From Patiria pectinifera (lineage: Eukaryota > Echinodermata > Asteroidea > Valvatida > Asterinidae): a stretch of DNA of 64,000 bases. This document shows positions 1-61,068 of this stretch, one piece after another. Position numbers and translations under genes: made by a program. The notes under the pieces were generated by a model. That model was given only the letters and a program-made list of their open reading frames with translations. It was not told the origin of the DNA and searched no databases. The stretch lies in the NCBI GenBank assembly GCA_029964075.1, contig CM057141.1, positions 10,540,001-10,604,000 on the forward strand. Direction: 5' to 3'. Within the stretch, counting starts at the first letter, position 1. Every line of letters begins with the position of its first letter.

Positions 1-3000
1 GAGACTGGTTCCGGAAGGAATACTGCCTCTGCCAGAGACAGCCGGAGGTCTCTTGATGGGAGAGGTCCCACCCCCTCGAGAAGTAGACAAAGAACATCTC
101 TGCTTAGGAGGAATGTAGGGAGGATCAGTAGATATGATGTGGAGGATGATGGAGATTGCTTTGAGACGCTTGCAGGCGCCGAGCGAGAAGAGGACTCTGA
201 TGAGGCTATGGAGATATCCCAGGATGCAATGCCTGTCATGACATCACACTCCCGGGCCCGAGGAATGCCGTGGCAGCATCAAACATCCACCAGGACAGGG
301 GAGGCATCCGATACCAAAGTTGGCAGGGATGCCACTCATGTGACAAACTCAGGAAACGGCACTGTAAGTAATCACGGTGACCATGTATCAGATGAGGATT
401 CTTACGATATTGAAGATGATGTCGTCAACATCTGCCCTTTGCAAAACAATCGTAGTGCACCAGAAGTAGATGTGGCAGATGCCCGTCACGCATACATGAG
501 TGCGATGTCTAGCATCGGTAGTGCAGCAACAAGAATTTCTCAGTGCCCAGCGGCAGCAAACTTGTCCAAATCGAAACCCACCAACGACGGGCCAGCTTTG
601 ATACCAGAGGAGGAATACACCGGAGGCAATGATTGGCTGGTCCAGGACGTCACGACCCAACCAAGCAAGCGCAAACGTATGGACGTGGACTACATGTTCA
701 GGAGAGCTGACGCCTCCCTCCCAGGTACATCCTCGCCAGGTCCTAACACAAGTCAGTTGAGGGCCTCCCAGAAGCCCTCATCGCTGAGTCGCAGGTCCAA
801 GAGATCAAGGCAACTGAAGTTGACCAACATGGGGACTGCTGTGGTGTCCAGGCATTCCAGAGAGGAGAGACGGGTACCCTCACCTCTCCTAGAGGAGGAA
901 GATAGTAGACCTGATTCAGAAATGGAATTCAGTCAAATGCAGGTTGGTGTTAATACTCCCTGAATTCGCTTTATGAATATGACTTAGCTGATTAAGATCC
1001 TCATCTGTCCAAATCTCAAGTGCACTAGTTTCAAAAGGCTCTGGAAAGTCATTTTGATAGAAGTTTCCTACTAATTTTCTTTTAATTAAACAGTAAAACA
1101 CTCCAAACTATAAGAATTTACTTGAAAAGGCTGTAAGATGTGTACTTGTAAAGGAAGTACGTGTGCAAGCTAAATTTCTCTTGTGATGAAAAAAAAAAAT
1201 CAAGTTAAAGCCAACATACTTGAAATCGCCATTATCTCGACGCTAGGACCTGGACGAGGCAAGATCAACTTCCAGACACCCAGAACCTTCCCAGGACCCC
1301 ACTCCAAGAGGAGACAACTGTCCGACGATAGACCAGCATCCTCCCGCAGCAGGAGCAGTCATGAGGGTCCGAGTCAAGATACAGGATAAGACGTTCCTGA
1401 TTCCGGTCAGGTAAGAGATACATTCTCTACCTTTACCCTATCCTTCCCAAATCCTCCAAAATCCTCTTTGCATAAGTGGAGGATTTTGAAGGATTGAGGC
1501 GATGTATGGCAATTATGTGTTGGTTGATTTTGGGGGATGCATCGCGTGAAGTCTGTATTGTTTAAGCTTAGACATGCATACATTTAGGCTTAGATTATAC
1601 TTGAAATCATCGGCACTGCCTCAACGTATTAACGGTGACTGTTGGAGGATTTTGAAGGATTTAGGCAGTGGTCACGTCTCCAATGAACAAACTCAAGAAA
1701 TAACGGATGATTTTTGAGGATTGAGGCTGTATCCATTTTTGACAGTGACAATTGGAGGATTTTGAAGGATTGAAAACTAACTGTTCTCAGCGATCATCAG
1801 GTCCAAACCATCGTTAGTAATGATTCAAAATTACTCTTTTCTTGGGAAAGACAGCAAACCAGGCTCAACAATTTCACAGGATGTTTCATACTCTTATGTT
1901 ACTTACAATGAAGTGAGACATTTCATAATATATTGGCAGTTTTGTTTTTGAGTGTCTGCAAATGATCCTATACGCCTTTAAAGTTTAAACAGTGCTGACA
2001 GGTGTTTATTAAGCGGTGGTTGAAGACCACCCACGTGACAGGCTCTCAACCAATTAGAATGGGTAAACTGTCTCAGATTTATAAATTTTGGTTGAAGGAA
2101 AAATACCAAGAGAGAAAGAGTTACATTGCCTTGATGTAATGATAGTAAGGCAGATTGATAAACAATATGATGGTGTTGTTCATTTAATGATAAAAGCATG
2201 GAATTTGGGACACAGTCAGAGTATGTCATCGAGATATTTGGCTATAGGGCCATCGCAGATTTGTCCTTTGAATAAAAATCATAGAATAAAATGCAATGAC
2301 TGCCATTTTGAAAATTTTGAAAATTTCTTGTTATCCTATGATATTTTTTTTTCAAAGGACAAATCTGGAATGGCCCTATAGCCAAATATCTTTCCCTTGA
2401 CACACTCTGACTGTTTGCCATTATTTCATGCCGAATTTCATGCCTTTGTCATCAAACTGAACGATCTTAATTATCATCAATCTGCTGTACTATAATGGCT
2501 TTGATGTCTTCCGTCCCTTAATATTCAGAGAAGCCAGAGATATGAGTTGGTTGTGCGAGGAAGCCTCCAAGCGATACTTCACCTCCTGCGGCCTGCGACC
2601 CAAGCTGGTCCTATGCACAGGGGAAGGGGCCATGTTCTCACCCGAAGACAGCATCACAGACCTACTGAATAATAATGAGGAGGTCAGTTTATTCTTGAAT
2701 ATTCAACAGATCTTTTGAGTAATTGTGATGCAGTTCTTTCATGAACATTCAACAAGAACATCTGACTAGGCGCATTATAATAACGTCAAAGTAGCACAAA
2801 GTAATCAACTAGAGCAGGCTTTGAACCACTGACCTCTGAATTACCGTACCAGTGCTCTACCAGCTGAGCTATCCAGCCCTATGTTGGCAGCTCCCCAGTT
2901 TTTCAATGTCTTTGTTCAAGGGGGCTAGTCAGAAGCCATAAACCCGTATATGCCAGGTAGCCAGGGATCACGCCCAAAGTCATGATGCAAGCAACATTAG

Positions 3001-6000
3001 CGATGCTGCAAAGCTGGGAAATAGCAAACAGGGATCACTCAGAAGAGATAGGTGTGTTAGTCCAAAAGGTCGCAGGTTCAAACGCTAGTGCAGTCAATTC
3101 CGTTCAACTTTTTATTAAGGGTTTAAGGGTAAATGAACATTGTCTTGATGAGCAAAGAATTATCCGATTGAACCAAGATTTGAGTCTAAGGCCTCTTGTT
3201 ATGTTGTGTAAATTGAGTTACATCAGAGTCCCTCTCTGAACCAATGACCTGCCATCGTTGTAGGACAGGCCATATAACCCATAAGCGTGCCCAAATTTTG
3301 AGAAGTCACTGTCTGGTTTTTTTTGCAGGTGATTGGTAAGGTGGAGTCCTGGGATCTCCCTCCACTCACAGAGCGGTACAAACGGGCCTGCCAAACTGCT
3401 CAAACTGGTTAAGTATTGCTTTCTTTAGGTTTCTACAAAGATAAAAGGGAGAGAAACACTCCTTTTTAATTAGAGCGAAGGCTACCACCCTGCAACAAAT
3501 AGCACAATTGAAATGGAAAGAGTATATAACACAGATACAAACGGACTTAAAAGGTCACAGTGCAAATCTAATAAAACTCTTTTTAAAAAAATTATTCTGG
3601 GTTTTGAAAGACACAAGCCAAGTATTAAAATTTGCATCACCCTGCTGCGTGAGATTCAAACCGGTCAGCTGACTTTAGCAAGCACATTGGTCAAATGGAA
3701 GGACGTGTGTCCCATCCAAATAATCTTGTCAAGTTTTAAAGGAAATGTACAACATTTGCTTTTGCTGTAATCTTCAAGAATAAATGGATTCAGAGGAATA
3801 GTATGTTAAAGCAAACATTGTTACACTGACTTGTTTCAGGTTTTGGGTTCGTAGATGCTGGAAAAACCAAGAAAACCAATAAGTTTCTTTTAGTCTGGTT
3901 CCCTGACCCCACTTGAGATGAAACTAAGCAATTTATAGATGTTGGGGAATTATAAGGTCATAGAATCAGTCTAGCTGGCTTGTACCCCTTCACAGGTGTG
4001 TTCTCTATTGCAAATGAAAAATTAGGAGCAGTTTTTGAAAAAATCCAGTTTTCTCCAACGCTGGTCGGCCGACCAGCGTTGGAAATTGATACAAAAATAC
4101 TACTTTACTTAAAACTATCCTCGTTATTTAAGAAATTAGGAAGTGCCATTTTTTTATTAAGTCTGTGGTAGTGTGTGTTGGATGTTTGGTATTTTCAACA
4201 ATCCAATGATATGTTTAGAAACATTAATTACATTTCTTTATTTTTGTGACATGCACCTTCCATAGCTTTCCAACACGTGGTTGGCAATAAGTGCCAACCA
4301 CTGATTGACAAAGAAAAGTCTATTGACTATAAGGAAATTCTATTGTTTTCTGAATGTCTTATCAGGTGAGCATCCCAAGATCCGCGGCTGCCTTCAACTC
4401 ACCCAGTCCACCCCAGGCACCCTGGACCTATCCAACGCTGCCCTCTCCCCTACCCATCTCACCCCGCTCTTCCTAGCCCTCCAGTGCCAGTACTCGCTGC
4501 GCAAGCTCCTGCTGCCCGGCAACCGCTTCGCCGACTCCGCCGTGCCCCCGCTGGTCGCCGCGTTGGAGAGCCTGCCCAACCTGGCCGTGCTGGATCTGAG
4601 CTGCAACGGGATCAGCCCCGAGGGATTAAAGCTAATCCAGGAGGGATTAAGTCAACGGTCTGGAGGGAGGGAGGCTTTGCAAGGACAGGGTAATCCCAAA
4701 CCACTACAGGTGTGATGATTTTTGGGTTTTAAAAACTATTTGGACAGTATTGTTGTCGAGTACATTTCCATGAGTATGAGTTCTTGTCATGAGTACCAGT
4801 ATAAGGCAATTTTTTTCTATGAGTACGAGTATGAGTACCAAAAAGATGTACTCGAGTAGGAGTAGGAGTATGAGTACAAGTACAACTACAAGTACAAGTA
4901 CGAGTACTACAATACTGGGATCGTCAGGGGGGCGGTAGGCTTCTGCAGATTTCAGGTCTCAGTTTCTGAAGCCACTTTTCGCTTTGTTCCGAAGCTTAAT
5001 CTTTGCTCTTCCAGACCCTCCGATATGCTTCAGTAATATCGTCAGATATTGTTCAGTGTTTATCAGATTTACAGTACAATGGTGAACAGCCACTCACTCT
5101 AAGAATGCTAAGCCAAATGTTTGGGGTTTTTTTCAGAAATGAAGCAGAATACTACAACTGAAAAAAGTCAAACAGCTTTTTTTTTTCAAGCTTTCATGTA
5201 TTAGTGCAAAATCAACATATTTGTCTTTGCGGTCAATTGGTTGATATAGACATGAACCCATTAGCACTTGTATTACATTGTACTACACTGTATTTACTCC
5301 TTGATGAAACCTTTACACCATAGAGTGCCAGGGCGGATTTGGGGCGATACAAGGAGTAACAGGCAGGGCTACAGGGACTCATGGGTTAAAGAATCAAAGG
5401 CACAAATGCAGAAAGAATCTTTAAATGAAAGTTGCTTTCCCCATGCTATTTTCAAGTTTTATCCTGAAAAATAACGTTATTCACCTTTGAATAAAACATC
5501 AACCAAAATAATTGGCCCAGAGGTTCAGTTACTGAATTATTGCATTACCATTTCAGAATTTGTGGCTGCCTGACAACATAATTCCATATGGACCAGGAGC
5601 CAGTCTGCTCGAAGCGGATCTGTTTGTGCCTAAAACAAAATACGTTCTTTTTCAGATGGTTGCAGACGTCCAAAAAAGGAAAAAGAGTGATTTTGTTGGT
5701 TGTTATAAAACATACAAGTTGAAAATTTATTAATTAATAGGGGGGAAATTTGTTAGAAGCACGTGGATGGCAACTTCAAAATGAAAAAGTTTCTCAACTG
5801 TTTTACTAGCTTCTGGAGATGCTAAATCTGAGCTACAATCCACTGACGGATGCCAGCGCCCCCTACCTCGCAGCCCTCATCAGCCACTGCAGCCTATTGG
5901 CCGAGCTGTCCCTGACCTCATGTGACCTGACAGCTAAGCTCTTCCAGCTGCACCGACGAGCGTTGACTGAGGCTTTCCAGGGTGCGTTGTGTTTCCTGAT

Positions 6001-8504
6001 ACACACTTTGAAATATGAATGGTTGATTGCAGCGCTCGCTGCCGTACCCAATTCAAACCAGCCAGTTGACCCTGGCAAGCGCAGTGGTCCGGTGATATTA
6101 AAACGTCTGCACTTATCCGCTCCCAAAGAAAGTACAGTTGGGGGTGACCGATCGACGCCATCTTGCCCGACTGCAATATTTTTCCGCGAAGAGTAGCCAC
6201 TGCGTGTACATACTACAAAATTAATCCCCTGGTGTACATGCGACACACACAAGGAACGGTGCGCGTGTCAACCAGCGAAATGTATGTGTCCCGCCCATGG
6301 GATGTCGTTGCTAGGTAAAAGGGCGCCCTCTTTTGTTGGCGTTCGGAACTTATGGGCAGGACAGGAATGCAATTGCAAGAATTCCGGATTTTTTCCTAAT
6401 TTGAGAAAACAAATCTGGGAATTCATCCCTTTGCAGGCCATAAAAATAGTTGCAGACAAGAAGAAAAATAAAAGAAAAAAGAAAAATGGTCATGTCATTT
6501 TTCAGCTATGGAAAAACAGTTACGCGTTGTTTGATCATAGCTCATGAGCCAATAGGAAAATTGGTTACGCGCTACTTGCTGTCATCGTGGTAATATAAAT
6601 GTGTAGTATATTTGATAGTTGCCCATCGTCTGATTGTAATGTCCTGCTGTCACGTCCTAAAACTTGTCTATGTCCACAGGGTCAAGTAACCTGCACACAC
6701 TCCGCGTCTCCCACAATGCACTGGGCTCGACGGGAGTGGAGCTTTTCCTGTGCTGCTTGACCCCTGACCTCGTCTCGTCTCTGGATCTTTCCTGTGTCAT
6801 CTCCTCAGCCGTGGGCAGCAATCTTACCAAGCATCTGTCATCTTACTTGTCACAGGTTGGATTATAACTGGGTGCCTACTCTGACAAGAAGTTTTTGTTG
6901 GGGGGGGGGGGGGGGCGGGGAGTTGCAACCAATGATTTTCTGCTTGAAAAATGTCCATTTTCCATTTGCCAAAGTCCTGAAATCTGTTTCAACCTTTAAC
7001 GATTAATAACGGTTTTACCTTCATTTCTTGTTTCGTGTAGTTAATGTCAACCTGGTTGAAGTGAACGAAATTTCCAAACAACAATAATAAAGTTATTTCT
7101 GGAATTTCAAATTTTACTAAATTAAAAGACATGTTTTTCTTCAAAAGCAAGATTTTCCACCTAAATCTCCACACAAAAAATGGATTTCAATTTTAGAATT
7201 AGAAATAGACTGTGCTTTTAAAATTTAGTCTGATCTGGCAGTATTTCATGCCCGTATGAATTTCTGTTTGGATTTTTCTATGTAGAGTTTAACATTTTTG
7301 TTAACTCTTTTTTTTTTCTTCAGCCTGATTGTTCACTGAAGGATCTTCATCTGTCGGGCTGTCATCTTAGTGACAATAACATCCTGGACATGACAAGGTA
7401 CGAATTACAATGAATTATAGTGCACTTCTCTCGCGCGATTTTGCGGAAGAAATTTGTCGTCACCTACACCTGTTGGAAGGGGCAATCTGGCTGCAATCTT
7501 TGCTAGTCCGTCATTCCACTGCTGGGCCAACAGCCCTACTTGCATAATTAATTTCATTTGCGTCTCTTTAAAATATTACCAGCTTTCCTTTCTAATTACA
7601 AACTTTCCCATACGTTTTCCATTGACCTACCGCTGTAGAATCACATTAGAATCGCGTCAACACAGCTTGTGAAATATTGTCCAATTTAGGCACGCAACTG
7701 GGAATTTAGAAAAAACGAGGAAATTCCAAGCCACACAAGACTTTGTACAGTGTTTTTCAATTTGTAATGGCATTCATGAGTATTAAAAAATAAACGAGGA
7801 AATTAGCAGATCTGAGGAAAAGTTGCATGCCTGCCAATTACATAATATACAAATGTATGCGGAACGTGCAAAATATGAGACAAACAAAACTTAGTGTACA
7901 AAAACTCCATATGGTTGTCTAGGGGGCATGGCTATCTCGCAAACGGTGATAGGTCAATTGTAATTCTTGGCTCAAATTTAAAGCTTATTATAATGCACTT
8001 AATGACTTCTGTTTGGGGTAGGAGCTCTCATTTGTTGCATTTTGTCTCATTTGTTGCATTTTGTCAAATCCAGCTCCAGTCCATTTCTTTGTTCAACTTT
8101 GACAAACAATTCTAATTGACTGTTTGCTATTCAGGTGTTTGTCAATCAGAAACCCCCTAGCCTCCCTCGACCTCTCAGCCAACCCACACCTCACCGAAGT
8201 CAGCATCTGTCCCCTCCTCCAAACCATCGCCAACTCGTCATCATCGCCCGCCCCGCTGGAGTCCCTCGACCTCTCAGGCTGCGGGTTCCAGACGCCCCTC
8301 TCCACCGACTTTCTGGCCAGGCTGTCCCTCCACCTGGTCAAGGACAGTCACAAGAGGGCGGGCTTGAAGAGACTACGGATGTGCGGGAACCAGCTGAGTA
8401 AGACGGATTTCGAGTTACTGATCGCAGTGTGGGAGGACGCTCACGGGGACGCTGCTATGCACAATGTGGATTCCGTTCGCTGTGAATTTGCCGTCCGAGA
8501 ATAG
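1..8504 (+). CDS. TONSL: Tonsoku-like protein (TONSL), C-terminal part; 5' end outside window
   Basis: TONSL with its partner MMS22L repairs stalled replication forks and reads new histone H4 in the nucleus. Nine exons: <1-942, 1247-1410, 2529-2682, 3329-3407, 4366-4709, 5810-5981, 6680-6855, 7324-7397, 8135-8504. Together they give 825 codons with every phase closing at a TAG. The first exon is open from base 1 and encodes an acidic, Ser/Arg-rich disordered linker with basic clusters ([16 protein letters not shown]). Exon 2 carries [14 protein letters not shown], the start of the ubiquitin-like domain, which continues through [11 protein letters not shown] and [17 protein letters not shown]. 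Exons 5-9 encode leucine-rich repeats ([50 protein letters not shown]). The order matches the C-terminal half of human TONSL; the TPR and ankyrin regions should lie upstream. The start of exon 2 is the least certain join: I chose the TAG before GACCTGG because it keeps phase 0. Confidence 0.93.
1435..1790. repeat. Dispersed repeat rich in GGAGGATTTTGAAGGATTGA units, copy 1
   Basis: Units of GGAGGATTTTGAAGGATTGA recur irregularly with spacers such as 'aaatcatcggcactg' and 'aactcaagaaataacggatga'. Matches 49840-50250 across its length and 28620-29300 in part. Confidence 0.7.
2137..2497. repeat. Large imperfect palindrome (about 360 bp)
   Basis: The inner arms pair almost perfectly (AGATATTTGGCTATAGGGCC at about 2231 with its complement at about 2373-2392). 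Outer parts pair more loosely ('cagattgat' at 2152, 'atcaatctgc' at about 2477). In a TONSL intron. Probably a foldback or MITE relic. Confidence 0.7.
2807..3095. mobile_element. tRNA-related repeat, family D, copy 1
   Basis: The complement of 2807-2880 contains GGATAGCTCAGCTGGTAGAG and GGTTCAAAGCCTG, an evident tRNA-derived unit. To its right lies a body with 'agccagggatcacgcccaaagtca' shared with 31650-31905. At the right edge a second tRNA-like box B (GCAGGTTCAAACGC, about 3073-3086) faces the other way. Confidence 0.65.
3738..4090. mobile_element. Partial copy of the TACAACATTTGC MITE
   Basis: Starts TTAAAGGAAATGTACAACAT and follows the family sequence to the palindrome CGCTGGTCGGCCGACCAGCG. 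The right terminal repeat is missing. In a TONSL intron. Confidence 0.65.
4745..4917. mobile_element. Short hAT-like MITE with GAGTAC repeats
   Basis: Left end CAGTATTGTTGTCGAGTAC, right end GTACGAGTACTACAATACTG; these are imperfect inverted copies, close to the ends of the 14564-15377 element. The 173-bp body is almost only GAGTAC/GAGTATGAGTAC repeats. No exact TSD remains. It lies in a TONSL intron. Confidence 0.7.
5468..5725. repeat. Dispersed repeat, family F, copy 1
   Basis: Shares with 44240-44515 the blocks 'gttattcac.tttgaat', 'attggccca', 'atggaccaggagccagtctgct', 'tctgtttgtgcc' and 'ataaaacatacaagt'. Fragment at about 8738-8802. Class unknown. Confidence 0.6.
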
Positions 8505-14400: not shown

Positions 14401-17400
14401 TTTGCTGGTGTTGTCCCAATGACAGGCTGATCACTAACTTAGTCTCAATATAAGGCCATCAGATGTGTATCTACGTGCTCACGTTGAGTTTGCTATCCAG
14501 GGCACACACTGGCAGTGCATCGTCGGCGCAGAGGATATGCGTTCCAATATTGTTATCAATATTCAGTGTTGTAGGACTCGGACTCGGGACTCGGACTCGA
14601 GTCCGGACTCGAGTCCTTTTTTCAAGGACTCGGACTTGGACTCGAGTCCTTTGCTCAAGGACTCGGACTCGGATTCAGACTCGGACCCCAAGGACTCGAG
14701 GACTCGGCTTCGAGTCCGGCTCGAGTCCGGCAAAATCGGGTCTTTTTTAGGTGTTTTATTTCAATTATTTTATGTCTTTCACCTTGATTTGGTTTTGCTG
14801 TGGAACCGAATTCCGCAGTTCTGCCGCTCGCAAAAATAACTTGCCGATTGATCAATGATCAATTGATTCATTCCAACCTAACAGTTATGCTATTTACAAG
14901 TTTTTTAACCTTTACTGTAAGAAAGGGAAATAAAGAAAAGCAACAAATGTGAAGAATAATTACTGAAGATCATATGCTAATTGTAATTGTCACTTTACTG
15001 TAGTATCTGCGTCAATATCTGTAAGCTTCTACGCATACTAAGGTAAAAGTTAATGCAAGTTTTTTTTTTTTAATGTACATTATAAACATAATGAATGCAT
15101 TGCATAGTGCATACAGCCAAAACCATTACCCCTTCTCTATCACCTGACATTTGATAGTGACATTTTGAAAACGTTAATATAGTATTGGTGAACCGCGACT
15201 TGAATTTGATACATAAGGACTCGGACTCGGACTCGAGTCCTTTTTTCAAGGACTCGGACTCGGACTCGGACTCGGACATCAAAAATTGACAAGGACTCGG
15301 ACTCGGACTCGAGTCCTTTGCTCAAGGACTCGGACTCGGACTCGGACTCGGATGAGGAGGACTCGACTACAACACTGTCAATATTGTTATCTTGACATGA
15401 ACATTCACCGCAGACCTACTTGGTGTGTGAGAAGCTTCATATCTTGTAACTGCCGTCTCCAAGCACTAACGCTGAATATACCCAAATAATTGTGTAAATT
15501 ACTGGGAAAAAGCTTCCTGTCGGCTTGGAGCTCATACCCATTAGTATATTTGATGTACTAGTTATATCATCAATCTGAAGCAACTTTCAACTGCAATTTG
15601 TTTGGAAGGATTCTCTCTTCAGAAAATGAATGCTTCATCGACAGATCCTTTGGCCGTGTCCCCGCTCTTTGTCGCTTTCCGTAATTGTTTCATCAGCTTC
15701 CTTGGATTGCTGATCATAGCTGGAAACATTCTTTCCATTGTCGTGACTCGTCGCGTACCAGACTTGGCAGACAGTACTAAGATCTTGATGACATCTTTGG
15801 CAGTAGCTGACCTCACAGTTGGCTGTTTGACAGCAGTTAGCGTCGTAGCTTCGGCTATGAACCGCTGGCCCTTCGGCGATGTTGCTTGTCACGTTTTCAC
15901 CATTGTGACAATGACAGGTTTTTTTGTGTCAATATTTTCCCTCATCTGTTTGAACATTGAGCGCTATATTGCCGTCACCCGACCCTACAAGTTTTCTGTG
16001 TGGTGCTCCCGGCGTCGTGTTATTATCAGGGTCATTTTATCAACAACTGTCTTCTGTGTTCAATCATTTCAATAAGCCTATTTCGAGTACATGCCCAGTA
16101 TTTCCAAGCTTCAGCTGTATGTTCTGTCGCAAATAATTCTCCAGTTTTAAACATTTTGGTCCTTCTATTCTTTTGCATAATTCCAGAGTTTATCATGACG
16201 TGTACATACTATCGCATCATTAAGATCAGCCGAGAGCATGAGAAGCGAATCAACCAAAACGATCCCAACAACAAAAACAACATTCGGGACAACAAAGCTC
16301 TGAAGATGTTCGTTGTCGTCACTCTGGCTTTTGCAGTTTGTTTCACCCCACAAATGATTACCAGAACCATTGTGGCTCACACCAATGTGGAGATTGCATA
16401 TTGGCTTCACTTTATGGTGACGTGGCTAGTTACATCCAACAGTATCTGCAATGTTTTCATCTACTGTCTGTTCAATCGCTCCTACCGTCAGAAAGCCAAG
16501 AAAATCATCATGAACAGATTACTCTTTTGCAAAAGTTCAGTGGAGCCTGTGAACATTCCAGTTTAAAGGGAAAGGTAGCATCGCAGACCCCCCTCCCCCA
16601 ACTTCAATTTGTTTACATTCCCTGAACAGGACTCCTGACAATGACAATGGCTTATGGGGCAGAGACATGGGCAACAACCAAAGAGATGGAACAAAAATTG
16701 ATAACACCACAGAGAGCTATGGAAAGGAGAAAGCTCAATCTATCATTACGGGCCAAAATCAGACAAACCGTCATATATGACAAAATACAACGTTCAAAGA
16801 TGTCATAGAGAAGATCAAGGAAATGAAATAGAGATGGGCAGGGCACCTAGCAAGAAGACAAGACACCAGAATAGACCAAGTGACACACAGAATGGCAACC
16901 AAGGACAGGCAGAAGAAGAGGTAGACAATAAAGAAGATGGAGAGATGAAATCACCACATACAAGAACACGGCAACATGGAGTAGAATGACAAACAGAAGA
17001 GAATGGAAACTGCTTGAGGAGAGCTTCATCCAACAATGAATGATCACAGCCTGATGATCATGAATGTGGACAGGACTCCTGAAGGCCTGCTTTTTGAAAA
17101 AGTTAAACATGTGTCCGTCGAGAATCACCGTTTTTACACCTTTGATCTCACTCTTGCACCAGTATAAGAGGTTGAAGAAAACTCTGTTTAAAATATCACA
17201 AGATATTAGATTGTGCCATATTGAGTGTTTTGCTGGTGAAATACTCAGGTTATTATGAGAGAAAAAATTGACGGCTTTTCCCATTTCGAGACTGATCATT
17301 GCTAGTTAACATGTTTGAGAACATATCTTTTAATATTCAGTGTTGAGTCATTAGCAACATAGTTCGAGGCATTGAGCCTTGTTTTGGGTAGACATAGTGA

Positions 17401-54795: not shown

Positions 54796-56035
54796 CGCCA
54801 CTGCAAGTATATATGTTGCGGATTATTTAATTCGTTATTACGGATTATTAATTTGTTATTACGGATTACTAATTCGTTATAACGGATTATTAATTCGTTA
54901 TTACGGATTATTTAATTCGTTATTACGGATTACTAATTCGTTATTACGGATTATTTAATTCGTTATTAGGGATTACTAATTCGTTATTAACGATTATTTA
55001 ATTCGTTATAACGGATTATTTATTCGTTATTAACAGATTATTAAATTTGTTATTACGGATTACTAATTCGTTATTGCGGATTATTAATTCGTTATTACGG
55101 ATTATTTATTCGTTATTAACAGATTATTAAATTTGTTATTACGGATTACTAATTCGTTATTGCGGATTATTAATTCGTTATTACGGATTACTAATTTGTT
55201 ATAATGGATTATTAATTCGTTATTACGGATTATTTAATTCGTTATTACGGATTATTTATTCGTTATTAACGATTATTTAATTCGTTATTACGGATTATTA
55301 ATTTGTTATTACGGATTATTTAATTCGTTATAACGGATTATTTAATTCGTTATTACGGATTATTTAATTCGTTATTACGGATTATTCAATTCGTTATTAC
55401 GGATTATTAATTCGTTATTACGGATTACTAATTCGTTATTACGGATTATTAATTCGTTATTACGGATTACTAATTCGTTATAACGGATTATTAATTCGTT
55501 ATTACGGATTATTTAATTCGTTATTACGGATTACTAATTCGTTATAACGGATTATTTAATTCGTTATTACGGATTATTTATTCGTTATTAACGATTATTT
55601 AATTCGTTATTACGGATTATTAATTCGTTATTACGGATTATTAATTCGTTATAACGGATTATTTAATTCGTTATTACAGATTATTAATTCGTTATTAACG
55701 ATTATTTAATTCGTTATTATGGATTATTAATTCGTTATTACGGATTACTCATACGTTCTGAGTCATTACTCGGCAACTTAGTATGGCACAGGAGTGGTGC
55801 TGGTGTAAAGCAAACGTATGCAAACATAGCGCCGCCTAGCGGCGCTATATACATAGGCCCCTGGTCACGTGCTCTCCACTTGTGAGAACATCAGACTTAA
55901 TTCGTAATAACGAATGATATAATCCGTAATAACGAATTAATAATCCGTAATAACGAATTAAATAATCCATAATAACGAATTAATAATCCGTAATAACGAA
56001 TTACATAATCTGTAACATATATGCTTGCAGTGGCG
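54796..56035. mobile_element. Foldback-like element with tandem-repeat arms
   Basis: Ends CGCCACTGCAAG and CTTGCAGTGGCG are inverted. The left arm is about 930 bp of a 15-17-bp unit (ttattacggattattaattcg-type), the right arm about 115 bp of the same unit in reverse (aataatccgtaataacgaa). The 145-bp centre (about 55750-55895) contains its own palindrome AGCGCCGCCTAGCGGCGCT. No TSD found. Confidence 0.8.
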
Positions 56036-56658: not shown

Positions 56659-59600
56659 ATGAGAATTGAGATGGGGGATGCAGGACAAAGCGGTTTTCAT
56701 TGGACATTACCTGAAGCTACAAATCGGCAAGTCACACAGATTGGGGCCTCAGCGTGTGGTGCAACAGCAGTTATAAACTCACTGGTACAAATAAATATGT
56801 TTCATCCTGGGGAGAAGATGAATTAATGCCCAGACCCCTACTTCTTGGACATTTCCCGCCCATTCCCAACCCCAACCCCCCTCCCCCATCCAAACCCTCT
56901 TGGAAAAAGTGCAGGGGAAAATAATGAAAAAAGCATAAATTTGCTGAATATTTCAAATTTTGTCCAAAAAATTTAAAAGTGTTACCCACCTACACTCTTT
57001 CAATGGCTACATTTTACCCCAACCTCCTCCTCAGTGCTTACTTAATTTCCAACCCCGTTTCCAATAGTAAGCCCTGGATAGGAAACTTTCTTTCTGTATC
57101 CTGATTCGATACCACAATTGGCTAGAAATTGATTTATATCGTGTACTTGGTGTTGTTATTCACAACATGCAGGGCGTGTTTTCACGATCATTCGTCCACG
57201 CCTTCTTAAAATATTCATTTCTTTTCCAAATTGTTCATATTAATATGAAATGTGATACTGAATATTGTCTTGTTAAGATCGTAACAGTTTAATTAAAATA
57301 AAACCGTGTTTTTTCGTAACTCATGCCATGCTCGTGCTACGACAAATTGATTCTGTTTTTACCCCAGACACTGCATACAAAAACAAATGCACATGAGACC
57401 CACAGGCAGGCACCAGACTATTCCTCATGCAAAAGTTCAAAAGTCTTGCACATGCAAATGATCCAATACCAGGGTGAGAGAGCAGGTAGTGGTGGGTGCG
57501 TACTGCTTGATACCCTGGGGACGAGGTTGATTTTACCCTTCTCTTAACACTTGCAAAACACAGTACAAATTAGGTCAAATGTCATCACCACATTTGCATT
57601 TAAGTTCAAACTTTATTCGAAAAAAACTACTGATAATAAGTCGCAACAAAATACCTGCCAACTGCAGTGTCTTTTGAAATGCTAATACATATTTTCCTTC
57701 TAGAAAGTGCTTAAGATCGACAAAGACCAAGAGGAGGTTGCAACAGCCGTCAACACCAGGCTGCGGGCCAACAACGTCCCCCTCACAGAGTACCTTTTCT
57801 CCAGGAGTGTTGCCGGAGTGACACACACCGACATCATCGAGGGCCTGGAGAAGGCATCCGGTGGAAAGATCTTCGCTAGATTCTTTCACCTCTACCCTAA
57901 GAGGGTAGTGGATTTACCCAGCTGGCTGGCCGGCTGGATTAATCTGGGTAATGGATGATTCGTCAAATGGTAGTTAGCCTAGTGACCTTGTTGTACCAAT
58001 CTGACTGACTGACTGACTCCCCGTCACTTGTGACCTAGACTGTTTGTAGACTGGTGAAGATAGCCGGGTTGTGCTATTGTATAGGATTGCCCCGTATCGC
58101 CAATGAATCGGTGAAATCTGATCCATTGTGTAGACCGGATGCATGAAAAGACTCCAAGTGGATAGCCATTCATCAGTTCAATAGAACTTTGTGCACTTTG
58201 GATCAGCCTAAAAGGGCCAGTTCATGCTCGGCAAAAGTTGAACACATTCCAGCGACTTTTCCCAGATGTCAACGTCGTCAACAGTCAAATGAAGTATGAA
58301 CTGGCCTGCACTAATTGTCTTGTTTTTATTAAGAAAAAAAAGTCACTTTCTAAAATCACTGTAGCGGCAATCAGTATAGATGTCACATAAATATTGAAAC
58401 CCACACAAAATTATCAATATACAAACCAAAAGAAATCCCTGGAAATCAATAAGCCATTTGCGATTGGCCTATACCCTTTGGGATTTAAATTTGAAAAACA
58501 TCTGGTACACTGACTTGCTCAGAATGCTTGGCACATTTTAACTTAGAATTCTCCAGACCAAAGACACGGTTGCTAATCACATGATTCGGGGCAAGCTCTT
58601 GCATAGTTACATAAGAGACGCTCAGCACCAATACATTGTTCCCAATGGCTGAGAATGGCACAAAGACACCAAACCATGCCGGAGCATGGGGTTGCTAGCA
58701 TAAGGTTTGCCCCGAATAACGTGATATAGTAACAGTCTCTTTGGTGGAGAGAGTGCAAAGTTAAAATGTGCAAAGCATTGGATAAAGTCAGCGTTCCAAA
58801 TTTTATTCATATTAATCTAGCAAATATTTGGCCAGTTCATATACTCAGCCAAAATTCGCGTAGCAAACTTGCAAAAGTTGAACACATTGCAGTGAAGTTT
58901 CGCTTGGCATGAAGTATGAACCGGCCTATACTGTACTAAGATTGTCTTGTCTTGTTTTTATTAATTAGATAGAAAAGTTACTTTCTCAAAGTCACTGTAT
59001 CAGCACTCAGTAAAGGTACACAAATATCCCAACCCACCCATAATTATCAATACAAACAAAAAAATCATATGCCAATTTTTTGTCTTGGTTCGTAGGAGTT
59101 GTTCCGATAGCAACACTCAATCTCCAGCATGTACCGAGTGGCGAGACCAACATTCCAGATGCTTGGCATCACCAGATGGTGTATGGCGTGACTAGCGAAG
59201 GCGTGCACATGTGCAACCCACTTACCGTGGAGACCATTCCCAACTTCATCAATTACGTAACCAGCGACTCGGTGCTGTTGGTAAATTTCCATTTGTTTTA
59301 GGCCTGGTTCCTGCTAATGGACACCGTGCACAAAAAGTAGATGGCGCTTTCTGACCACTTTCGAGAACCCAGTGGATGGGAGACACTGCATGCGCATATA
59401 AGCGCGTTCACACCGTTGATCGTGGACGTCCTATTGTCCCTCTTTTGTTTGTACGTATGCTGGGAATCGTGGACGATATTGTTCCCTTTCGTTCTCTGGA
59501 ATTTTTCGTCTACGGTTTAAAAAGATGAACACGCCCGTAAGGGTTGCGTGTATATAGCACGAACTATAAATTTTCTGAATGTGCACAAAACCGTAGCGTT

Positions 59601-61068
59601 TTTTGTATGAGTGACAGCTGCATCATCGGCAGTCCGTTTGATTGTCCCTCCCATGTGGTCTCCCCCAACTCTCCCCTTGTAACCGTTGAGGGTGTTCTTG
59701 TGCACGGAGTCCTCATACCAATCAGGGAGGCCACTCACGGAGGCCTCCAACAGTGGCGGAACATCGGGCCAGCTATTGTTCAGATAATCTGTGCAGGGGT
59801 ACGCAATAGCTAGCACAATGCTTTCGCCGTTGGGAGTGGGCGTGTGTGACTGTACAAGTACAGTGATACCATTTTGGTCATGGTCTACAGCAAAACTATT
59901 ACTAAAGACTTTGTGTATAACTGTAACAGAAACGTTCGCGTGCAAATAATGTATTTGTGATGTTATTTTCAAAGATTTGAATTCATTCAGTGTAAGAAAC
60001 TATTGGGATCGTTTTCATGTGAAAGTTTGACTGTTGCAGTCTCTCCAACAACTCCAGAGTCCAGTCAAGTAATTTGAAGTTATAATGTTTGCATATTTGA
60101 TAAGAAATACCAATTGGATCAACTTGAATGAATCAGGTTCCACATGACTCTAGAAGGCCTGTCTGAAACGGGTGACATTTGGCCATTTCACATTGGTTTG
60201 GTTATTCACGAAACCATATATTGGTGGGTAGGGTTAGCACTTGGGATTTGTACTTAATGTATCATATCCAGTTTCTCAAAAGTCGTATGACTATGAAGAC
60301 ACAAATTCACATTCCTCACAACACTAAATTTGTCTCTCTGAGAAAAGCAAGAATATTGGCTAATTGTTGAAGTGGAAGTCCTGTTGTCACCTTAAAGTCA
60401 TCCACAAACATCTTTCGTGTCCAAAATCATTTCATTTTAACAGATTCGCAGAGTAGATGTTATCAGTCGATGGCAAGAAGGCATGGATTTGTCTGTTCTT
60501 TCCCAAAATGATGATTCTGGATGGCGGGAAATGGACGTCGAAGGTTAGTGTAGAAATCTTGTGACTTGCTAAACATGCCTCACCATTAGTGCTTAAAGTG
60601 ACTAGAATGAAAACAATTTCTTGAGTAGTTTAGTTTATGTTGTAAATTTTGCCTGAAGTGATTCTTATTATCAATAAACAGTTTACGATTTTGTATGGTT
60701 TCCTTGCACAAGTCCCCACTCAACGGTCACAAAGGGAAGAGTTTGGGGCGACCACTGGGAGGGACATTCAAACACATTGCTGACGACGCAATGGTTATTG
60801 TTACACTCAATGCAAATGTTGCTATTGTTGCTAATGAAATTATTTCATTTCCTCTAACTCAGGCCAAGTCAAGAAGATGCTGAGTGAGCCAGAGCCCTAT
60901 AGCCAATCACCAGAGAGTCGACCAGCTGGGCTGCTTGCTGATTGGCTGTTCAAGAGTCACATTTGTATACCTGCCGCCTACCAGTCAGGCGTAACCTTGT
61001 GTGTGAGGAAGGATAACACTGCTGCTTACAGGCTGTTGATTGAAGAGCCAGAATTGGTCGTTGCGTAG
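56659..61068 (+). CDS. Uncharacterised 286-aa protein with C39/papain-like cysteine peptidase signatures
   Basis: I do not recognise a named family. Five exons: 56659-56784, 57704-57947, 59096-59280, 60444-60543, 60863-61068; every phase closes (287 codons). Exon 1 starts MRIEMGDAGQSGFHW after an in-frame TGA and holds GASACGATAVINSL, a Cys-Gly helix start like the nucleophile of C39/papain-fold peptidases (Cys33). Exon 2 carries NVPLTEYLFSRSVAGVTHTD, then FARFFHLYPKRVVDLPSWLA. Exon 3 has GVVPIATLNLQ followed by DAWHHQMVYGV (His148/His149) and CNP (Asn164), the spacing expected of the His and Asn/Asp members of such a triad. Exons 4-5 encode a tail ending EEPELVVA. No signal peptide or membrane segment is visible, so it is probably cytosolic. 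Peptidase activity is inferred from the motifs only; it could be an inactive relative. The final exon is followed by AT-rich DNA with AATAAA candidates near 62580 and 62693. Confidence 0.82.
57020..57529. mobile_element. Longer MULE-like relative (510 bp), 9-bp TSD
   Basis: Begins CAACCTCCTCCTCAGTGC and ends CCCTGGGGACGAGGTTG; exact 9-bp TSD ATTTTACCC at 57011-57019 and 57530-57538. The outer about 55 bp on each side match the 100-bp copy; the middle 403 bp (57072-57474) are absent from it. It lies in the first intron of the peptidase-like gene. Confidence 0.78.
58180..59070. repeat. Intronic tandem duplication carrying a GGCCAGTTCATA palindrome MITE in each copy
   Basis: 58216-58440 and 58829-59070 match: a MITE with GGCCAGTTCATA and TATGAACTGGCC (or TATGAACCGGCC) ends, followed by 'attgtcttgtttttatta', 'agtcactttct' and 'aattatcaatat'. 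Lies between exons 2 and 3 of the peptidase-like gene. Confidence 0.7.

What the first reader, a model, noticed from the sequence alone, without database searches (positions are those of the whole stretch)
56659..61068. Unfamiliar 286-residue protein with a C39/papain-like Cys-His-Asn arrangement
The five-exon model closes perfectly and joins a Cys-containing GASACGATA exon to a DAWHHQMVYG...CNP exon. Seen: the motifs and intact splicing. Known: C39 and papain-fold peptidases order Cys, His, Asn/Asp this way. Inference: an uncharacterised cytosolic cysteine peptidase or amidase. The Cys exon is short and only recognisable by splicing, so gene predictions may miss it and hide the catalytic residue.
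Basis: partly seen in the sequence, partly recalled or inferred. Interest (0 to 1): 0.7.

Follow-up and report, generated by a model that had tools for sequence, protein, structure and literature searches.

The report
Divergent animal C39-like cysteine hydrolase gene
This animal gene appears to encode a lone, so far unnamed relative of the papain/C39 cysteine peptidases with a complete predicted active site, which is a modest but useful annotation because the standard family model libraries searched here do not recognise it.

Summary
The five-exon gene is real: 56659-56784, 57704-57947, 59096-59280, 60444-60543, 60863-61068, 286 aa. A search of its 613.5 Mb genome found only these exons. Pfam, NCBIfam and PADLOC give nothing at E 10; PHROGs gives one weak match. 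Against a profile of 34 bacterial Peptidase_C39_2 (PF13529) domains, residues 20-190 score 18.3 in global mode, above all 300 shuffles (maximum 14.6) and all 157 decoys (maximum 12.4). Most of that signal comes from the Cys half. Gln27, Cys33, His148, Asn164 and Pro165 align in register, which no shuffle of 300 achieves. Joining exons 1 and 2 lifts the local score from 12.7 and 8.2 to 22.7, supporting the splice. A modest AlphaFold2 model (pLDDT 52.6), guided by distant phage C39_2 proteins and so partly circular, has the C39 order of elements; its best PDB match is a C39-like peptidase. Best reading: a divergent C39_2-like clan CA cysteine hydrolase with an unassigned C-terminal extension.

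The parts
56659..56784 (+). Exon 1, residues 1-42: Gln27 (56737-56739) and the putative nucleophile Cys33 (56755-56757) at the start of the core helix
   Evidence: aligned to the conserved Gln and invariant Cys of C39_2
57704..57947 (+). Exon 2, residues 43 to 123/124: rest of the Cys helix, helical middle region, strand and helix before the His strand
   Evidence: join with exon 1 raises the C39_2 profile score
59096..59280 (+). Exon 3, residues 124-185: GVVPIATLNL strand, His148 (59167-59169), His149, Asn164-Pro165 (Asn 59215-59217), start of the last strand of the core
60444..60543 (+). Exon 4, residues 186 to 218/219: start of the C-terminal extension, no family match
60863..61068 (+). Exon 5, residues 219-286 and TAG stop (61066-61068): C-terminal extension, no family match

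Best explanation
The gene encodes a divergent clan CA (papain-superfamily) cysteine hydrolase, apparently single-copy, whose catalytic domain (about residues 20-190) is most like the bacterial/phage Peptidase_C39_2 group. Inferred mechanism: Cys33 at the N-terminus of the core helix is the thiolate nucleophile, His148 on the later beta hairpin activates it, Asn164 orients the histidine, and Gln27 together with the Cys33 backbone forms the oxyanion hole. The substrate carbonyl is attacked to give an acyl-enzyme, which is released by water (peptidase/amidase) or another acceptor (transferase). The C-terminal extension (about 190-286) would give specificity or binding. Shown: gene structure, profile match, in-register residues, compatible fold. 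Inferred: catalysis, hydrolysis rather than transfer, and the role of the extension.
For: Gene model and genome search. Global hhalign score of the core against the 34-sequence C39_2 profile is 18.3; 0 of 300 shuffles and 0 of 157 decoys reach it. The local score is 22.9; 1 of 300 shuffles and 0 of 157 decoys reach it. In the alignment Cys33 falls on the Cys present in 34 of 34 members, His148 on the His in 34 of 34, Gly154 on the Gly in 31 of 34, Gln27 on the Gln in 28 of 34, Asn164 on the Asp in 26 of 34 and Pro165 on the Pro in 19 of 34. MAFFT of the core with 12 phage C39_2 proteins puts Gln27, Cys33, His148 and Pro165 on invariant columns, and Asn164 on Asp (10 rows) or Asn (2 rows). All five in register: 0 of 300 shuffles; the four without Gln: 1 of 300 shuffles and 0 of 157 decoys. 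Guided model: pLDDT 52.6, pTM 0.47, with the core helix beginning at residue 32 and a His strand followed by an Asn strand. Of its 8 PDB matches at E <= 0.001, six are C39-type or phytochelatin-synthase-like by title; best is 3erv, E 3.8e-5, TM 0.57.
Against: No Pfam, NCBIfam or PADLOC match at E 10 (HMMER's filters drop most matches above 0.1). The profile signal comes mostly from the Cys half: residues 105-190 alone score 11.4 local and 2.9 global, about the mean of shuffles of the whole core, and exon 1+2 alone already scores 18.6 globally. The His-Asn half therefore rests on residue register and the model. In the first, full-length MAFFT alignment Cys33, His148 and Pro165 were in register but Gln27 was not, and the middle of the alignment is poor in all three versions. 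Single-sequence AlphaFold2 failed (pLDDT 32.5). The better model used C39_2 rows, so it is partly circular, and only 92 of 176 residues reach pLDDT 50. No orthologue could be found, so conservation of the triad in its own family is untested. An intact site does not prove activity.
Confidence: 0.75

Rival explanations
1. Same fold, but an acyltransferase or transpeptidase rather than a hydrolase: a phytochelatin-synthase-like or BtrH-like enzyme in which the acyl-enzyme is passed to an amine or thiol.
For: The local match to a two-sequence phytochelatin synthase (PF05023) profile is 22.9, reached by 0 of 100 shuffles, over residues 26-51. The guided model's third and fourth PDB matches are two chains of the Alr0975-glutathione acyl-enzyme entry (2bu3).
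Against: Global alignment to the PF05023 profile is worse than most shuffles (97 of 100 reach it). The BtrH_N profile is no better than shuffles (28 and 36 of 150 reach the local and global scores). No Pfam match to PF05023 or PF14399.
Confidence: 0.2
2. A papain-fold pseudoenzyme or scaffold: the domain is inherited but the protein now binds rather than cleaves.
For: Divergence from all profiles; inactive papain-like proteins exist in humans (androglobin, TINAG, TINAL; PMC10318531 passage).
Against: All four catalytic positions are intact in sequence, which is less likely to persist in a dead enzyme.
Confidence: 0.15
3. Not a papain-fold protein: the motifs are chance and the gene encodes an unrelated orphan protein.
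For: No family match; single-sequence model fails; a bare Q-C-H-N/D pattern occurs in 6 per cent of shuffles; the His half alone does not stand out in the profile test.
Against: Whole-core profile score and residue register beat shuffles and decoys; the stricter Q-CG-H-[ND]P pattern occurs in 0.039 per cent of 100,000 shuffles, although it was set after seeing the protein.
Confidence: 0.1
4. The gene model is wrong (mis-joined exons or a decayed gene).
For: Weak exon 1 donor; no RNA evidence; Met1 not certain.
Against: Complete open frame, GT-AG introns, GC contrast, and a domain match that improves when exons 1 and 2 are joined.
Confidence: 0.05

Closest known systems
Peptidase_C39_2 (PF13529), bacterial and phage C39-like peptidases; solved C39-like example 3erv
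   Same: Whole-domain profile alignment better than all controls in global mode; Gln, Cys, His, Asp/Asn-Pro in register; 2 of 12 phage relatives also have Asn at the third position; 3erv is the top structural match of the guided model
   Different: Not detected by the PF13529 model at E 10; has introns and about 95 extra C-terminal residues; lies in an animal genome
Peptidase C39 (PF03412), ABC-transporter leader peptidases (PCAT, ComA)
   Same: Local match 22.0, reached by 1 of 150 shuffles; structural matches 6mpz, 3k8u, 5xe9
   Different: Global match 7.6 is reached by 8 of 150 shuffles; no transporter part in this 286 aa protein
Phytochelatin synthase (PF05023) and Alr0975
   Same: Cys-helix local match; structural match 2bu3; discussed in the same cluster I section as C39_2 in PMC10318531 (passages)
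   Different: No global match; profile had only two sequences
Animal papain-like proteins GUCD1 (PF09778) and ACTMAP/C19orf54 (PF21646)
   Same: Human members listed in cluster I by PMC10318531 (passage)
   Different: Matches to these families lie elsewhere in this genome, on contigs C19 and C14; the window protein matches neither Pfam model

Membership tests
Papain superfamily / clan CA | Cys at N-terminus of the core helix, then His, then a polar third residue (Asn, Asp, Gln or Glu) | tested here: met
   Cys33, His148, Asn164 in register with C39_2; definition read in PMC10318531 section 6
Papain superfamily / clan CA | Papain-like fold | tested here: inconclusive
   Single-sequence model failed; guided model has the order of elements with modest confidence and is partly circular
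Papain superfamily / clan CA | Oxyanion-hole Gln upstream of Cys (papain spacing 6, recalled) | tested here: met
   Gln27 is six residues before Cys33 and lies on the conserved Gln, though not in the full-length alignment
Papain superfamily / clan CA | Cysteine-dependent catalysis | not testable with these tools
   Needs the protein
Peptidase_C39_2 (PF13529) | Score over the Pfam gathering cut-off of PF13529 | tested here: not met
   0 Pfam families at E 10 for the spliced protein; no match to PF13529 in the genome at E 1, read exon by exon. So it is called C39_2-like, not a member
Peptidase_C39_2 (PF13529) | Profile alignment over the whole domain better than controls | tested here: met
   Global mode 0 of 300 shuffles and 0 of 157 decoys; the Cys half carries most of it
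Peptidase C39 (PF03412) | Fusion to an ABC transporter | tested here: not met
   286 aa protein with no Pfam domain match at all; an upstream exon is not excluded
Phytochelatin synthase (PF05023) | Whole-domain match | tested here: not met
   97 of 100 shuffles reach the global score against a two-sequence profile; Pfam no match
BtrH_N (PF14399) | Profile match better than shuffles | tested here: not met
   28 and 36 of 150 shuffles reach the local and global scores
ACTMAP-like (PF21646) and GUCD1 (PF09778) | Match to the family model | tested here: not met
   No Pfam match; these families match other contigs
DUF3335 (PF11814) | Profile match better than shuffles | tested here: inconclusive
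   19 and 77 of 100 shuffles reach the local and global scores, but one of the 19 rows (L128) appears to be read on the wrong strand

The most novel reading that the evidence does not exclude
A previously unclassified animal lineage of the C39-like cysteine peptidases: a soluble single-copy enzyme with its own C-terminal specificity domain, distinct from GUCD1 and ACTMAP, that performs a dedicated processing step such as maturation of one protein substrate or trimming of small peptides, in the way ACTMAP serves actin.
Probability: 0.35. Interest if true: 0.6.

Novelty: new member of a known kind. Interest (0 to 1): 0.36.

Why it matters
The papain superfamily is very diverse and new families are still being assigned to it (PMC10318531, abstract). 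An apparently single-copy animal gene with all four catalytic positions, not seen by the standard models, is a candidate dedicated protease or amidase, and its annotation can be tested with one active-site probe experiment. It also shows that a catalytic residue can sit in a short coding exon with a weak donor, where automated models could lose it.

Tried and rejected
Direct homologue searches found nothing: PDB by sequence (one match at E 1.4, unrelated); genome contigs by six exact 8-residue patterns (45 stretches, none confirmed); IMG/VR in the same way (7 stretches, none confirmed); plasmids by tblastn at E 1; phages by tblastn (four places at E 1 to 3, judged chance); 398 genomes of the phylum of G005 (the tool itself warns that an empty answer without a positive control shows nothing). 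PHROG 29471 matched residues 119-188 at E 0.12 only and was not followed.

Degenerate DNA patterns for the Cys motif were scanned: ACGATA-x-x-N in viral contigs (0 stretches) and genome contigs (29 stretches), and CGATA-x-x-N-x-x in viral contigs (9 stretches). I translated all 38; the best phmmer E was 0.0013 within that set of 38 frames, and I judged all 38 to be chance.

Model coordinates were not in the box, so active-site distances were not measured. A profile search of PDB with alignment A6 hits 3erv at E 9.8e-39, but the 12 phage rows drive that, so it says nothing about the window protein.

Rows dropped: C39_2 profile used 34 of 40 loci (L049, L069, L075, L076, L078, L082 left out as partial, broken or weak); BtrH_N 9 of 10; PF03412 10 of 13; PF05023 2 of 3; PF11814 19 of 20 (one apparently wrong-strand). 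Several loci are in both the C39_2 and the PF03412 sets (for example G036:C8 and G036:C20), so those two profiles are not independent. Decoys were 157 open frames of at least 250 aa from L006-L034, cut to 171 aa or 176 aa; not all are proven genes. For the folded alignment, L114 (identical to L113 as printed) and L124 (broken frame) were left out; three alignments were made and only the last, A6, was folded.

Literature searches for a described animal C39_2-type gene (15 of 17, 15 of 664, 3 of 3, 9 of 9 and 10 of 46 papers listed) showed none that I recognised. I saw listings with abstract beginnings only, except PMC10318531 (outline, abstract, section 6, passages) and PMC13367750 (one passage).

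Full report
Observation. The window lies in a 613.5 Mb eukaryotic assembly of 1020 contigs. The five listed exons join into one frame of 286 codons and a TAG stop at 61066-61068. All four introns are GT-AG. Donors rank at the 86.9 percentile or higher of local GTs and acceptors at the 84.7 percentile or higher of local AGs, on a generic matrix that I wrote from recall, and exon GC exceeds intron GC. The exon 1 donor is the weakest donor. A whole-genome search with the protein returned only its own five exons. Whether Met1 is the true start is open, since the frame continues 8 codons upstream and acceptor-like sites lie just before it.

No direct relatives. Pfam, NCBIfam and PADLOC give no family at E 10, and PHROGs gives one unnamed family at E 0.12 over residues 119-188. 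PDB sequences, plasmids, phages, IMG/VR and prokaryote genomes gave no confirmed relative; the collection scans need exact 8-residue matches and would miss distant ones. No collection of eukaryote genomes was available, so orthologues in other animals could not be looked for, and the protein should not be called unique.

Profile test. I fetched PF13529 (C39_2) domains from prokaryote genomes and built a profile from 34 of 40 loci. Residues 20-190 score 18.3 in global mode; 300 shuffles have mean 3.7 and maximum 14.6, and 157 decoys have maximum 12.4. In local mode the score is 22.9, which 1 of 300 shuffles and 0 of 157 decoys reach. The global alignment covers the whole domain and puts Gln27, Cys33, His148, Gly154, Asn164 and Pro165 on the positions that are Gln in 28, Cys in 34, His in 34, Gly in 31, Asp in 26 and Pro in 19 of the 34 members. 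The signal is uneven: residues 26-110 alone score 23.0 local and 19.9 global, while residues 105-190 alone score 11.4 and 2.9, about the mean of shuffles. Other papain-superfamily profiles do less well. PF03412 scores 22.0 locally (1 of 150 shuffles reach it) and 7.6 globally (8 of 150). BtrH_N is not above shuffles. PF05023 matches only around the Cys helix (local 0 of 100 shuffles, global 97 of 100). PF11814 is not above shuffles, but that profile held one row that appears to be wrong-strand.

Second alignment. MAFFT of residues 20-195 with 12 phage C39_2 proteins found by a separate scan sets Gln27, Cys33, His148 and Pro165 on columns invariant in all 13 rows, together with Pro68 and Thr130, and sets Asn164 on Asp in 10 rows and Asn in 2. 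In an earlier full-length alignment Cys33, His148 and Pro165 were in register but Gln27 was not. The middle part aligns poorly throughout. Repeating the core alignment with 300 shuffles, Cys and His both fall in place in 10, with Asn/Asp in 4, with Pro as well in 1, and all five in none. Of 157 decoys, 8 have Cys and His, 1 also Asn/Asp, and none also Pro. The phage proteins match PF13529 in 12 of 12, while the window core matches no Pfam family.

The splice. The local match, residues 30-59, spans the exon 1-2 junction at residue 42/43. Exon 1 alone scores 12.7, exon 1 read through into the intron 13.0, exon 2 alone 8.2, an artificial exon 1 to 3 join 17.2, and exon 1+2 joined 22.7.

Structure. 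Without an alignment AlphaFold2 fails (pLDDT 32.5). With the 12 distant phage rows the core reaches pLDDT 52.6 and pTM 0.47. The order of elements, in full-protein numbering (core numbers plus 19), is helix 32-44, helices 51-64 and 83-93, strand 98-103, helix 115-122, strands 126-131, 148-156, 159-164 and 167-171, short helix 174-177, and strand 182-187. Foldseek against PDB gives 8 matches at E <= 0.001: 3erv (C39-like, E 3.8e-5, TM 0.57), 6mpz, 3k8u and 5xe9 (C39 domains of transporters), two chains of 2bu3 (Alr0975), 8z4h (PeiR, papain-like from recall) and 8ssm (a CDI toxin complex whose fold I did not check). Staphopain, calpains and cathepsins follow in the 50 listed of 536, with some entries whose folds I did not check. 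In BFVD the 4 matches at E <= 0.001 are an uncharacterised mimivirus protein, an uncharacterised phage protein, an unnamed entry and a phage protein named peptidase. Because the rows that guided the model are C39_2 proteins, this shows compatibility rather than independent proof.

Mechanism. In papain-like enzymes the Cys sits at the start of the core helix, and His and a polar third residue complete the triad (PMC10318531 section 6). The window protein has this with Asn as third residue, as in papain (recalled), and Gln27 six residues before Cys33, the papain spacing (recalled). I infer an acyl-enzyme mechanism. Hydrolysis of a peptide or amide bond is my first choice; transfer to another acceptor, as in phytochelatin synthase or BtrH, is not excluded. 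Residues 190-286 are unassigned. The modelled N-terminus shows no hydrophobic signal sequence by eye, but an upstream exon is not excluded.

Comparison. It is C39_2-like but fails the PF13529 cut-off, so it is not filed as a member. Matches to GUCD1 (PF09778) and ACTMAP-like (PF21646) families lie on other contigs and the window protein matches neither model, so it is not either of these. PMC10318531 (passages) treats C39, C39_2, BtrH_N and phytochelatin synthase together in its section on papain, cathepsins and others, and lists human GUCD1 and C19orf54 in cluster I.

Verdict. The fold and active-site interpretation is supported at about 0.75, and the enzymatic and cytosolic parts are untested. 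It is a divergent new member of a known superfamily with modest interest.

Noticed in passing
window 54819-55747 and 55898-56015: A long 21/43-bp tandem array (about 43 copies of the 21-bp unit) is followed after about 150 bp by a shorter array of the same unit in inverted orientation, just upstream of the gene; arms up to 118 nt and 91 per cent complementary. It may be a mobile element with inverted terminal tandem repeats.
   Followed up: partly
window 1-8504 (+): Exons of a leucine-rich-repeat protein (weak LRR matches in two frames); it reminds me of the C-terminal part of TONSL, from recall only.
   Followed up: partly
window 15554-16563 (+): A rhodopsin-type GPCR (7tm_1 E 9e-22 and 6.2e-11) read in two overlapping frames, so there is an intron, a frameshift or a broken copy near 16.0 kb.
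   Followed up: partly
window about 59600-59750 and 60700-60830: Introns 3 and 4 hold similar stretches in opposite orientation (conceptual GGTIKRTADDAA and GGTFKHIADDAM readings), possibly copies of an interspersed repeat (by eye).
   Followed up: no
window 2806-2878 (-): One tRNA-like match barely over the Rfam gathering score (30.4 against 29 bits).
   Followed up: no
residues 119-188 of the protein (exons 2-3): Weak match to PHROG 29471, a phage family of unknown function (E 0.12), over the His-Asn part; that phage family may also be C39-like.
   Followed up: no
G000:C19 at 19.456-19.458 and 19.516-19.518 Mb (outside the window): The PF09778 (GUCD1-type) matches come in two sets about 60 kb apart, so this genome may carry two copies of that gene or a local assembly duplicate.
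   Followed up: no
BFVD A0A481Z1V4 (not in the window): Best viral structural match of the guided model is an uncharacterised mimivirus (LCMiAC02) protein (E 1.0e-5).
   Followed up: no
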